NCBI GenBank assembly: GCA_016281825.1 | Contig: JAEEJI010000199.1 | Location: 1-35,158 of the forward strand | Direction: 5' to 3' | Length of the DNA stretch: 35,158 nucleotides | DNA from: Muribaculaceae bacterium | GTDB taxonomy: Bacteria; Bacteroidota; Bacteroidia; Bacteroidales; Muribaculaceae | Shown: positions 16,634 through 23,444 of the stretch, piece by piece | Layout: each line of letters opens with the position of its first letter | Position numbering within the stretch: position 1 is the stretch's first letter | Translations under genes and position numbers: made by a program | The notes under the pieces: generated by a model | Told to the model about the DNA's origin: nothing | The model's database searches: none | What the model saw: the letters and a program-made list of their open reading frames with translations, nothing else

Positions 16634-19600
16634 TTATTTCATCACTTTCACCGTACTGGTTGTACCGTCGGTGTAGCGCGTGACGATGATGTTCACGCCT
16701 TCGAACGGGCGGTCGCTAACCTGACCCATGGCGTTGACATATTGCACGCTTTGTACTTCTCGGCTAGCATTGATGCTATTGACATCAGTGGTCGGGTTGA
16801 CATTGATCGTGAGTTTAAGCCATTGACTATGCCCTTTGGCAGTCATGCGAACAAGCATCGAGCGTTTGCCTTGCTGCTTGCCGATTACAGCCAAATTGTT
16901 GTCATCACCATCCTTGGTGACGGTCATCACATCGTCATCGACCTCGCCATCGAGATAGTAGCGCTCGCGGGCACCATTATCGGCATGGGCAAAGTAGGTG
17001 GCCAAATCAACCATGTTTTCGCCTACTGGTACATCCACCTCGGCTTCGCTGACATCGGGCATGCAACCCAGATCGTCCATGGCGAAGTAGCAGGGGGTGA
17101 GCAAGCCATAGGTGTTGGCCTCGCTGCCACTGAAGCTGAAACTCAGCTTGGTGACCTTACCCAGCGGTCGCAGGTCTACCCATTCCCAAGTGTCAAGGAT
17201 ATAACGGTTAGCCTCGTTGGCGCGATAGTCGCCCAGGTTGAATTCCACGCTGCGTGTCTCGCGGTCGGCAGTGGTGCCCGTGATGGTCAAGGTGAAGTAA
17301 GAGCCTGACTCGAACGCTGCCTCGCCATAGCCTTCGCCGGTGAGCATGTTCTGGTAAGCATAGGCCGTGTTGGTTACATACATACCCATAATCGAGTCGC
17401 CCTCGGCATTATTGGTCACCACGATGGACGGAGTTGAACCATACCAGTCTAATGGTGATGCAATCAGGTAGTTGCTTGCGCTATGACCCGCACCGTTGGC
17501 ATTGCGCCACTGGTCATTGAGGCTGCCATACTCGGTCGAGGTCTCATTGCTCAGTGCATAGCCATACCAGTATTCGTAGGCAGGCATGGAGCCCTGATCA
17601 AATGCGAACGAACCGCTGTAGAATACGTCGCTCTCCAGGTCGTAACACTGATCGTGCGAGTTCTCGGGCAAATAGTTGTCGTCAAACTCTGCCACAACCT
17701 GCTCTCCGCGGACAATCACGCCTGCCTTAGCGGTGACGCTTTGGCCGTCAGCACTAGTGACTTTCACGCGATAGCCCCAAGTGTACTCGGGCTGCACGGT
17801 GAGGGTGGCATCGGTACCCAGACTGTTGTTCATCTGGTCAGTCCACTCATAGGTGTAAGGCTCGTCACCGCCCGCTACAACAGGTGCGAGCGTTGCTTCG
17901 CCACCTGCCTCGATGGTGGCACCTGCCAGCGTTGCGGTCAGCGCAGGGATGTCGCGCAAGGTGGTGAACTCGATGCTCGCAATCGCACTCTCATTGCCCA
18001 GTGCGCTCACATTTAAGAAGTAGGCCTCATACTTGGTGTTCTCGTCCAAGCCGTCAAACGTGGTGGTTGCCTCTTGGCCAGCCATCACCGACTGCGGCGT
18101 ACCCGCCTTCAGCTCTTCGGCGGTTGGAGCTGCCTTGGCGCCCTCGGCCTTGACCACTTGGCTATAGAGCTTGCCGCTCACCGTCCATTGGGTCTTCACA
18201 TCGGCACTGTTGATGGTAAGGTTGGCGACCATAGGATAGCCCTCGGCCAACTCGGGAGTCTCCTCGCTGAGCTCGACAAACTCGTAGGCGCCAATGGTCG
18301 GGGTCTCGGTGTTGCGCTCCACGCCGTCGGCATCGACAGTGATAAAGTCAACGGGAAGGGCGGCGCATAGGTTGCCCTGCTGGCGCAGATGCAAGTCGAC
18401 CTCGCTCAAGAACTGAGCTTGCTCGGCGATGTTGCCACTATTGCCCTCCAGGGCATTGAGCGCGTCAACGTCGGTGTCAGTCAGCACGGTGGAACCATAG
18501 AAGGCATTGTTGACAAACTTCGCCTTGCCATTGGCATTGCTGTGCATCCACATCACAGTGCTGCTGGTGGTGTTCTGGAACAAATTGTTCTGCAACAAGA
18601 TGTTGTCAAACGACAACGGGTTACGGGTTGCAGTATAGAAGCAATAGCCTCCGTTGCCAGCGATGCGCACCGTGTTGTTGTAGAGCGAGATATTCTTGTT
18701 GTCGCAGTCTATTTCAATGCCCACGCTGCTGTTGCTGGGCGACTGCGTGATTGACACCACGTTGTTATAGACCAGAATCGGCTCGTTAGCAGTGCCGTAG
18801 CTCTCCATGCGCAACTCAATACCACCGCTGTAGTAGCTGGTCTCGTTGGTAATCTTGTTGCCGGCAATGACTGCCTTGCCGCGCACACGAGCGGCATCGA
18901 TGCCCCAGTAGCTGGTCTTTTGGGTTGTTGACTGGTAAATGGTGTTGTTCTCAATCACCATGTCGTCCTCATCATACACATAGATACCCTTGCTGCCGCA
19001 CTCGCTGATGGTGTTGCCACGCACGACGAGTCCCTTCTCGCGGCTGAGTGCCACATAGTTGGTGCCACCCAGGTAGAAACCGATGTAACCACCTTCAAGC
19101 AGGTTGTCCTCAAAGGTAGCATAGTCGTTGTTGTGGTTGTCTTCGTTCAGGCCGAAGGTCTTCACCAGGTTGATGCCGCTGTAGCCGCTGGTCACTGGCG
19201 TGGCCTTGACGTGCGTGTCGCGCAGGGTGAAGTGGTGCGAGCGGTCGTAGACGCACACCACATAGCTGTATTCGCTTTCGCGCGATGGGATGAAGCTCAT
19301 CTTCTCGAAGGTGACATAAGGCGTGTTCTCGACAAACACCACACCTTTCTTATAAGAAGAACTGCTAGGCAAATACTCGCTGCTGCCCGAACCGGTCACA
19401 ATCACCTTGTCACGGTCGCTGCTGAGACTAGTGAAGGTAATGGTGTTCTGTTCACTGACACCCGGTACATTGCTGAACCAGACGTTTTCGGCATAGGTGC
19501 CGTCCTCGACCTGGAAGGTGACTGCACCCTCGACACCGCCTTGCAGGGCCGTGGTGGCAGCGGCAAAGGTAGCATAGTGCGCGTTGTCGCTCGCGCCGAT

Positions 19601-22600
19601 GATGTAGTTGCCCTTCAGACCGGCCTTAATGGTGCGTTGAGCCGCTGTGGCATCAACCGCCATCTCGCTCTCGGCGACGGTCACACTTTTGACCTGTGCG
19701 GTCACGGTGTTGCCAGCGGTGGCATCTTCGGCGATGTCATAGGTCAGCCACAAATAGTAGTCACCGTTCTCGGTGATGGCTAGCGGCTCGTTGAGCGTGA
19801 TGACGTTCTCGCCGTCGGTGACGGTGGTGACAGTCGCCAGCAGGTTGTTGATGCCGAACGATGCGTTGTGTGCAGTGTAATAGAGCTTGGCAGCGGCGAT
19901 GTCGGTCGTGCCAGAGGCATCAAACTTCACGCTAGTGACACTGATTGGATCTTTATCACCGCTGACATTGAGCTTGATTTGCTGCATGGGGTTGTCCTGC
20001 GAGTTGCGCATGACATCGTCGGTGGTGTTCGCAACCGTGATGGCCTCGACAACAAACGGTGTCTTTTCGTGCAGACTCACCTCCATTTCCCAACCATCGA
20101 GGGTTGAGGCGGTGGTGTTGGCCTCGAAGACCACGGTCAGCGAACCGTCCTCGGCCTTGCTCACCAAGTTGGCGGGACCAGTGGTGGTGCTATAACCCGT
20201 GACCGAACCCAGGATGTTATCTTGGATAGCCTCACGGCCGCTATAGATGAACATCTTGCCCGAGCCAATCGAGAAGGTCGACTTGGTGTCGATTTGCACG
20301 GCACTGTTGTCACGGCCTGGTACAAAGATGGTCGTGCCCTTGAAGCCCTTGGTCAACTTGCCGTCCTTGCCGCCGTCGTCGTAGAACATCAGCGGGTCGG
20401 TGACGGTGACGATGTTGGTACCGCTCACCATGTTGTAGATATACTTCACCACACGCGCACCGTCGGGGTCGCCGTTCTCAACAGCGGTCTCGCCTGCGGC
20501 ATCGACCAGGGCGGAAATCCTGGCGTCGATGGCAGTCTCGGCAGGAGCGTCGGCCTTGACATCGATGGTCAGCCACAGGTAGTTGCTGCCCTCGGCCAGG
20601 TCGTGGTTGCCGACAATGGTGATGGCGCTAGTCTCAGGATTCTCAACCGAGCCAAATGCCACTGCCGTCTCACGGTCGTTGGTGTTGTTATAGTAGAGGC
20701 TCATCTTGCTTACAGCCGATTGGGTGTCCTTCATGTCAACCTTGACACCCGTCAGGGTCTTCACGGTGAGGGTTCCCTCGGTCACCACCTCCATGTCGAG
20801 CAGGGCGGCATCGGTGGCACCCACGGCGAGCACGTCGCTGCTGGTCTGGTTGACGGTGACCTCATTGATAGTCATGTCATGGTTCTGGAACGGACGCACG
20901 GTGGCCATCCAACCCGTACCGGCATAGTAGCTGCTGGTAGTCTTGGGGTTAAAGCGGATGGTCAGCGAACCGTCGGCGCTGGTCGAGCGAATCTTCTTGC
21001 CCGGACCCACCGTGGCCTCGCTGGCATCCTTCAGGTTCCACAACAGATTCTCGCTATTGATGCTGGTGCCGCTGTAAATTTCAAACACGGCACGGGTGCC
21101 ATAGCTTGAGCTTGCATAGTATACATCAAACTTTGAGAAATCAATTTCGGCGACAGTGTTCTCCTGGGTCGGAGTGAATGTGACTATATAATCAGTGTTT
21201 TCGGTCTCGTACTTGCCGCTGTAGCCCTCGGTGTGGGTGAACTTCCACTCGCCCTTGATGTTGTGGCTGTGGCTGCCTTGCGTGGCATGGCAGATGTTGT
21301 CAACCAAGCGGGTGGCGGTCACTGTTTCGGCAGGAGTCTGGGCTGTACCGGCCACAGTGACATCCTGCAGCGACAAGGTGATCTCCTCGCCATTCTCGGC
21401 CTCCTCATTAAGATCAAGCACGATGGCAAAGTAGTTGTGTCCCTCAATCAGCTCCTGAGTGCCAGCGATGGCGATGGCAGTGCTGGTGACCTCGGCCTCG
21501 CCAAACTTGTTGGTGGTGGCAAACTCGTTCTTCTTGCCCAAGAAGTATACGGTGGCCTTAGCAATATTCTTCACATCGGCGGTATTCACGTTAATGCCGG
21601 TCACGCTCAGTGGATTGCTGGTGTTGTCGGTCAGCACGTCGACCACGAGCATCTGCACATCCTTGTCACCAGCGGCGACAGTGGCGCTCGATGCGGCCTC
21701 ACCCGTGACACTGTTCAGGGTCATGTCACCAGGCAGGAACTGCGAGACAGTGGCCTCCCAACCCTCGGCAGGAACACCGGTCGTACTGTTGAGCGTCACG
21801 GTCATCGAACCGTCCTCGGCGGTCGACTTCACAATCTCGGCATCGTCGAGTAGGGTGGTGATGAGGTTAGCCTCGTTGGCTTCACGGCCGTTGTAGAACT
21901 TAAACACGTCGTTCAAGCCAGTCGACGAGGTATTGAAGATGGCCAAGCGGGTGAAATCCACCTTGATGGCTTGGCCCTCGGTGGCGGGGACAAAGGTGAC
22001 TTGACCGTTGAAGTGCAGGCTAATCTTGCCATCCTTGCCACCGTCATCATAGAAGTTGGCGGCATCATCGATGGTGTAGGTGGTGGCCTCGGCACCCATC
22101 AGGATTTTGTTCTCAATCGTGATGGCATCGCCCGTTGTGGCAGTAGGGGTGCGCTCCTCGCCAGCTACCTTCACGGTCTGGATAGCGAGAGTGGGGATAT
22201 CGCCCGATGCATCTGGCAGGATATCGGCAACTACCATCAACTTGTTGTGACCATTCTTGAGCGTCACATTGGTGGCGGTCAGTGCGTCGCCCGTAGCGAG
22301 TACATTGGTTCCGTTCATCAGGCGCACGTTGGTGACCTGCGTCGAGCCAGCCAGTGCGCTGGCGTCAATCGTGAGTTGGTCCAACGTCAGCGGGTTGCCG
22401 CCGCCGTCCATCACCACGTCCACGCCAAAGATTTCCTGGTCCTTGGCACCACGCCAGGTGTTGGCCAGACCCGTGATGGCGGTCGTGCTCACATACTCCA
22501 TGTCCTTCGGACTCAGGCTGGTGACAGTGATGTTGAAACCTTTCTGGCCGTTAGGTGATGTAGAATGGAAGCCAAACGACAGTTTCCCATCATCTGACGT

Positions 22601-23394: not shown

Positions 23395-23409
23395 TTACAT
23401 TTCACGCCA

Positions 23410-23444
23410 CAAAATTACAAAAATAAATCCATTCACCAACCAAA
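23410..23444 (-). promoter_or_regulatory. Candidate promoter for the riboswitch transcript
   Basis: Minus strand TAATTTTG (-7, 23410-23417) and TTTG (23441-23444), 23-nt spacing, just upstream of the riboswitch 5' end. Confidence 0.55.

What the first reader, a model, noticed from the sequence alone, without database searches (positions are those of the whole stretch)
16634..23444. Cobalamin riboswitch as the 5' leader of a giant DUF4465-like, T9SS-tailed secreted protein
A canonical minus-strand B12 riboswitch (23213-23394), with a TAATTTTG promoter just upstream, is followed by only one downstream gene before a strong terminator (16566-16604): the 2132-aa protein. Established: B12 riboswitches in gut Bacteroidetes control surface corrinoid-capture proteins such as BtuB, BtuG and BtuH. 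From memory, DUF4465 proteins recur in such loci. Inference: this large protein is a B12-repressed surface factor for corrinoid capture or adhesion. I know of no described riboswitch target with this architecture.
Basis: partly seen in the sequence, partly recalled or inferred. Interest (0 to 1): 0.88.

Follow-up and report, generated by a model that had tools for sequence, protein, structure and literature searches.

The report
Riboswitch-controlled giant secreted B12-binding protein
A gut/rumen bacterium makes a very large protein that is predicted to be exported to the cell surface, carries a proven type of vitamin B12-grabbing domain, and sits behind an RNA switch that senses B12; the same gene-plus-switch pairing recurs across an order of bacteria, which points to a previously undescribed giant form of B12 scavenger.

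Summary
Rfam RF00174 matches 23196-23409 (-) at 100.5 bits; the next gene is a 2132-aa protein with a signal peptide, CUB-like/BNR repeats, a beta-helix, Fn3/Ig-like domains, a true DUF4465 domain (E 4.5e-47) and a C-terminal sorting tail found at 29 places in this genome. The window's domain models onto B12-bound 9HMU (target TM 0.81) and keeps BtuJ1's Tyr146, Thr242 and Tyr245 equivalents. New here is the system. Of 37 testable giant DUF4465 genes (24 in the family, 13 elsewhere in the order), chosen without regard to riboswitches, all 37 lie behind a B12 riboswitch: 34 directly, 3 as later genes of riboswitch-led btu operons. In 14 genomes with related scaffold giants, none of those giants has one nearby. 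I read it as a giant, probably T9SS-exported BtuJ variant that captures corrinoids when B12 is scarce. B12 binding, export and repression of this protein are predicted, not shown; the role of the CUB/BNR/beta-helix part is unknown. Novelty: new variant of a known kind.

The parts
23410..23439 (-). Putative promoter: TTG (23439-23437) - N19 - TAATTTTG (23417-23410), Bacteroidetes-type
   Evidence: sequence; consensus from general knowledge; not tested
23196..23409 (-). Cobalamin riboswitch aptamer (RF00174)
   Evidence: cmscan 100.5 bits, E 3.2e-24
23173..23191 (-). Conserved hairpin just after the aptamer (GCUCU-CGUGGAAUU-AGGGC), probably part of the expression platform
   Evidence: 5-bp version in 20 of 24 leaders with several pair types per position, against a mean of 0.81 (max 4) in shuffled leaders
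16634..23032 (-). Giant secreted DUF4465 protein, 2132 aa
   Evidence: 275 homologues at E<=1e-30
22961..23032 (-). Signal peptide (about residues 1-24), no lipobox cysteine
   Evidence: read from the translation
19670..22945 (-). Alternating CUB-like and BNR_assoc_N domains (residues about 30-1121)
   Evidence: PF14873 three stretches; AF2 model of residues 306-870, pLDDT 90, matches CUB and sialidase N-terminal domains
18500..19045 (-). Right-handed beta-helix (residues 1330-1511)
   Evidence: PF13229 E 5.5e-10; TIGR03804
17693..18340 (-). Fn3/Ig-like segment before the B12 domain (residues 1565-1780)
   Evidence: AF2 model of residues 1565-2132; weak Ig_3 match in the Dysgonomonas homologue
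17069..17578 (-). DUF4465 / BtuJ-type B12-binding domain (residues 1819-1988); Y1891, T1979 and Y1982 align with BtuJ1 Y146, T242 and Y245
   Evidence: PMC12751083
16637..16807 (-). C-terminal sorting tail (residues 2076-2132), T9SS-type
   Evidence: same tail profile at 29 places in this genome
16571..16604 (-). Intrinsic terminator ending the one-gene transcript

Best explanation
A one-gene B12-scavenging unit. When intracellular cobalamin is low, the leader riboswitch permits expression of a ~2100-residue exported protein. Its signal peptide and C-terminal tail send it through the type IX secretion system to the cell surface or medium. There its BtuJ-type DUF4465 domain binds corrinoids tightly and hands them to the cell's BtuB-BtuG-BtuH uptake machinery, which is encoded behind a second riboswitch elsewhere in the genome. 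The CUB/BNR/beta-helix part acts as a long stalk or adhesive arm that places the B12 trap away from the cell. Shown by computation: riboswitch, domain membership, conserved ligand residues, shared tail, conserved coupling. Inferred from relatives: B12 binding, repression by B12, type IX export. Speculative: the stalk/adhesin role and the hand-over route.
For: RF00174 100.5 bits. DUF4465 E 4.5e-47; PDB matches 9hmu E 1.7e-22 and BtuJ1 9fct E 9.7e-10; AF2 model onto 9hmu_A, target TM 0.81, rmsd 2.8. DUF4465 members bind B12 (PMC13398666; BtuJ1 sub-nanomolar, PMC12751083). Riboswitch coupling in 24/24 testable giants of the family and 13/13 elsewhere in the order; 0/14 in genomes with related scaffold giants. 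Tail at 29 places in the genome; T9SS regulator PorX in the window, 810.8 bits. Same genome: a second riboswitch followed by BtuB, BtuG, BtuH relatives and a small DUF4465 protein with the same tail. B12 user: both methylmalonyl-CoA mutase subunits, cobalamin adenosyltransferase in the window, no CbiD found.
Against: No experiment on this protein or, to my knowledge, on any giant homologue. BtuJ1 Asn241 aligns with Leu1978 here, and the third halo tyrosine (Tyr97) is not matched in this alignment. One relative (G022) keeps riboswitch and scaffold but has no detectable DUF4465, and G082 lacks the HI-loop tyrosine, so B12 binding may not be the only function. The off-state mechanism is unsettled: clear terminators occur in some leaders only and the window's is weak. 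The assembly is about 83% complete, so absences (CbiD, MetH) are soft. T9SS core components other than PorX were not searched.
Confidence: 0.8

Rival explanations
1. The protein is chiefly an adhesin whose production is merely cued by B12 scarcity; the DUF4465 domain is minor or serves as a sensor, and binding of host or plant glycans or other cells by the CUB/BNR/beta-helix part is the main activity.
For: Most of the length is adhesin-like; related beta-helix giants without a riboswitch nearby are widespread in the order. G022 keeps riboswitch and scaffold without DUF4465, and some relatives have lost the key tyrosine.
Against: The riboswitch goes with the DUF4465-bearing form and not with the sampled related scaffold giants (0 of 14). 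The DUF4465 domain is retained in nearly all close relatives found. Three giants sit inside riboswitch-led operons with BtuH relatives.
Confidence: 0.11
2. The protein is a secreted sequestering agent, released by T9SS and depriving neighbours of B12, rather than part of the producer's own uptake.
For: No lipobox; T9SS products can be released or surface-anchored (general knowledge). BtuJ acts at a distance on vesicles in B. thetaiotaomicron (PMC12751083).
Against: The genome also encodes BtuB, BtuG and BtuH relatives under a riboswitch, and in some relatives the giant lies in the same operon as btu genes.
Confidence: 0.08
3. Chance adjacency or annotation artefact: the riboswitch does not control this gene.
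For: No transcript data.
Against: Gap of 163 nt with no intervening gene; the pairing is conserved in 37 of 37 testable relatives with varying leaders but a conserved post-aptamer hairpin.
Confidence: 0.01

Closest known systems
BtuJ1/BtuJ2 (DUF4465, IPR027828) of Bacteroides thetaiotaomicron; D5EK51 of Coraliomargarita akajimensis (9HMU)
   Same: Same domain family, predicted augmented jellyroll, conserved DE-helix and HI-loop tyrosines; BtuJ is riboswitch-linked and exported
   Different: The solved ones are small (chains of about 220-305 residues; BtuJ1/J2 are lipoproteins); this one is 2132 residues with a long repeat/beta-helix arm, no lipobox and a sorting tail, and forms its own one-gene riboswitch unit
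BtuGH fusion of B. thetaiotaomicron (PMC12751083)
   Same: A B12-binding domain fused to another extracellular module in a B12 uptake operon
   Different: BtuGH fuses two B12 binders; here a single BtuJ-type binder sits on a large scaffold of unknown ligand
Beta-helix scaffold giants of Bacteroidales (unnamed adhesin-like proteins)
   Same: Shared scaffold detected by profile in 95 of 395 genomes of the order
   Different: Sampled ones have no cobalamin riboswitch nearby
Cobalamin riboswitch targets in Bacteroides btu loci (BtuB, BtuG, BtuH, BtuJ, BtuK)
   Same: RF00174 control of surface corrinoid-capture genes
   Different: No giant single-gene target of this architecture found in the held literature

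Membership tests
Cobalamin riboswitch (RF00174) | Covariance-model score above the gathering score over the full model | tested here: met
   100.5 bits vs 31.5, model 1-189
Cobalamin riboswitch (RF00174) | Cobalamin-dependent control of the downstream gene | not testable with these tools
   needs RNA or reporter data
DUF4465 / BtuJ | Sequence match to PF14717 | tested here: met
   E 4.5e-47, 161.1 bits vs cut-off 25
DUF4465 / BtuJ | Augmented beta-jellyroll fold of B12-bound members | tested here: met
   AF2 model (pLDDT 86) vs 9hmu_A: target TM 0.81, rmsd 2.8, 30% identity; 9fct_A 0.77
DUF4465 / BtuJ | Conserved corrin-contacting Tyr146, Thr242, Tyr245 (BtuJ1) | tested here: met
   Y1891, T1979, Y1982 by alignment; Asn241 is Leu1978 and Tyr97 is not matched
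DUF4465 / BtuJ | High-affinity cobalamin binding | not testable with these tools
   shown for eight other members (PMC13398666)
DUF4465 / BtuJ | Lipoprotein anchor (common, over 70% of members, but not defining) | tested here: not met
   signal sequence MRYLKTCLFLMVMLMSVAIEASAAG has no lipobox Cys by reading
Type IX secretion cargo | Signal peptide plus C-terminal sorting tail shared by many exported proteins of the genome | tested here: met
   tail profile at 29 places in the genome; signal peptide by reading; Pfam/NCBIfam tail models do not hit
Type IX secretion cargo | T9SS present in the genome | tested here: inconclusive
   regulator PorX at window 12449-13993, 810.8 bits; core components not searched
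CUB domain protein | CUB fold in the repeats | tested here: met
   AF2 model of residues 306-870 vs TSG-6 CUB_C (2wno) target TM 0.77, rmsd 2.9; PF00431 in the Dysgonomonas homologue E 8.9e-08, not in P0001 itself

The most novel reading that the evidence does not exclude
The CUB-like array is a receptor for protein-bound cobalamin, for example a host B12 carrier such as salivary haptocorrin, so that the giant takes B12 from its carrier and traps it in the DUF4465 domain, functionally echoing mammalian cubilin. The only hint is that the top PDB fold match of the repeat region is cubilin bound to intrinsic factor-cobalamin (3kq4, E 3.9e-13); other tandem-CUB proteins score nearly as well and the global TM is about 0.2, so this is not evidence of a shared ligand.
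Probability: 0.04. Interest if true: 0.9.

Novelty: new variant of a known kind. Interest (0 to 1): 0.6.

Why it matters
If true, T9SS-bearing Bacteroidales (rumen and gut Muribaculaceae, Dysgonomonas and others) carry a conserved, riboswitch-governed giant B12 trap that differs from the small lipoprotein BtuJ of Bacteroides. It would extend B12 capture from small anchored or vesicle-borne proteins to very large exported ones, give a function to a family now named only 'DUF4465 domain-containing protein', and explain why adhesin-like giants sit under cobalamin control. It is also a clean test system: a single gene with its own switch.

Tried and rejected
(1) A simple regex for the aptamer found only 14 of 25 calibration genes; Rfam models were used for all counts instead. 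(2) Transcription termination as the general off-mechanism: good terminators before the start codon in some leaders (L036, L037, L044, L046) but not in most, and weak in the window; a terminator/antiterminator pairing seen by eye in a few leaders was not tested statistically, so it is not claimed. (3) The downstream TonB receptor as part of the unit: separated by a strong terminator, no PDB relative. (4) A missing riboswitch in G110: resolved, the giant is the fourth gene of a riboswitch-btuB-btuG-BtuH-like operon. (5) G189, G472 and G516 could not be tested because the gene runs off the contig. (6) The 24-row alignment was too diverse for the search for related loci; a 10-row one worked. (8) Cubilin kinship from the fold match: rejected as evidence (see novel case).
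Full report
What is there. The window's minus strand carries a full-length cobalamin riboswitch (RF00174, 23409..23196, 100.5 bits), a Bacteroidetes-type promoter-like site just upstream, a 163-nt leader, and a 2132-aa gene (16634..23032) that ends before an 11-bp stem-loop and T run (16604-16571).

The protein. Pfam finds DUF4465 at residues 1819-1988 (E 4.5e-47), three BNR_assoc_N stretches and a right-handed beta-helix. 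Two AF2 models, residues 306-870 (pLDDT 90) and 1565-2132 (pLDDT 86), match tandem CUB proteins and sialidase N-terminal domains and the DUF4465 structures. The start looks like an ordinary signal peptide without a lipobox (read). The last 57 residues match a profile found at 29 places in the same genome, five of them in the window, and the window encodes the T9SS regulator PorX. Pfam and NCBIfam tail models do not hit this tail, so the T9SS assignment rests on the shared tail and on PorX; core T9SS components were not searched.

What DUF4465 does. Two papers establish it. BtuJ1 and BtuJ2 of B. thetaiotaomicron belong to cobamide uptake operons, most of them riboswitch-regulated; BtuJ1 binds cobalamin with sub-nanomolar affinity, and BtuJ proteins serve uptake through extracellular vesicles (PMC12751083). 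Eight divergent members bind B12 (PMC13398666); that paper states that over 70% of the family are predicted lipoproteins and does not use the term T9SS. The window's domain aligns with 9HMU (E 1.7e-22) and BtuJ1 (E 9.7e-10) and models onto 9HMU with target TM 0.81. By that alignment BtuJ1 Tyr146, Thr242 and Tyr245 correspond to Y1891, T1979 and Y1982; Asn241 is replaced by Leu1978 and Tyr97 is not matched.

Conservation of the coupling. PF14717 was searched in 199 genomes of the same family; 25 long open frames with a DUF4465 domain were taken, without regard to riboswitches (the window's own gene is not counted among them). RF00174 was then searched in those genomes. In 23 the aptamer lies directly upstream on the same strand (65-381 nt from aptamer to start codon after start correction). 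In G110 the giant is the fourth gene of a riboswitch-btuB-btuG-BtuH-like operon (gene identities by resemblance to the window genome's operon). G189 runs off its contig. Elsewhere in the order, a profile of the scaffold gave 16 genomes for closer study; 15 have a DUF4465 match and the 16th, G022 (same family), does not. Of the 15, 11 have the riboswitch directly upstream (28-217 nt) and two (G387, G539) have one gene between, resembling BtuH by reading; G472 and G516 run off their contigs. Total: 37 of 37 testable. These genomes are related to one another, so these are not 37 independent events. As a contrast, 14 genomes with related scaffold giants have one or two riboswitches each, none near the giants; whether those giants carry DUF4465 was not checked.

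Two informative exceptions. G022 has a 1773-aa relative behind a riboswitch with no detectable DUF4465, and G082, in the same genus group, lacks the HI-loop tyrosine. Either that lineage is losing B12 binding or the scaffold has a B12-related role of its own.

The rest of the genome. A second riboswitch (contig C114) precedes relatives of BtuB (8blw_A E 6.9e-136), BtuG (8blw_B) and BtuH (7biz, 8blw_B; with a dockerin tail) and a 321-aa DUF4465 protein with the same sorting tail. A partial second giant, 53% identical over 1382 residues, fills contig C19; its aptamer region would lie off the contig. Both methylmalonyl-CoA mutase subunits are present; MetH and CbiD were not found in this roughly 83% complete assembly. 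A cobalamin adenosyltransferase lies in the window at 8241-8804.

The leader. A hairpin just after the aptamer is a perfect 5-bp stem in 20 of 24 leaders with changing pairs, against a mean of 0.81 in shuffles. Clear terminators before the start codon occur in only some leaders. The direction of control (repression by B12) is taken from known btu riboswitches (PMC8941943), not shown here.

Who has it. 275 proteins match at E<=1e-30; 119 of the 120 listed carry both PF14873 and PF14717, and the few with a source name are 'DUF4465 domain-containing protein' or 'hypothetical protein'. Named loci are mostly Muribaculaceae and other Bacteroidales MAGs, many from ruminants, plus Dysgonomonas sp. BGC7, where the riboswitch and a 2360-aa giant with DUF4465 are confirmed.

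Verdict. A giant, exported, riboswitch-controlled BtuJ-type B12 trap is the best reading (0.8). The domain's function and the switch are known kinds; the architecture and its order-wide coupling to the switch appear undescribed in the held literature, which lacks most subscription journals.

Noticed in passing
window 8241-8804 (-): Cobalamin adenosyltransferase (PF01923, E 3.2e-62), another B12 gene in the same window.
   Followed up: no
window 16473-16531: Perfect inverted repeat GGGGACGGTTCTTAATTGTATC with a short spacer just downstream of the terminator; a 16-base core is absent from the other loci fetched, apart from two that overlap this window.
   Followed up: partly
L101:16356-16672 (-): In Dysgonomonas sp. 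BGC7 a second cobalamin riboswitch lies directly upstream of carboxyl transferase and biotin carboxylase genes (14643-16181 and 13123-14622), an unusual-looking target.
   Followed up: partly
L118 (G231:C63): Two DUF4465 domains in tandem in one riboswitch-preceded ORF of about 1440 aa.
   Followed up: no
L073 (G022:C8): Riboswitch plus scaffold protein without a detectable DUF4465 domain.
   Followed up: partly
L040, L096 and L034:3963-5195: Some giants and the BtuH relative end in a dockerin-like tail instead of the usual sorting tail.
   Followed up: no
window 23851-25676 (-): Two adjacent DNA/RNA non-specific endonuclease genes (PF01223).
   Followed up: no
window 28190-32314 (+): 1374-aa protein with the sorting tail and weak amidase and Ig-like matches.
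   Followed up: no
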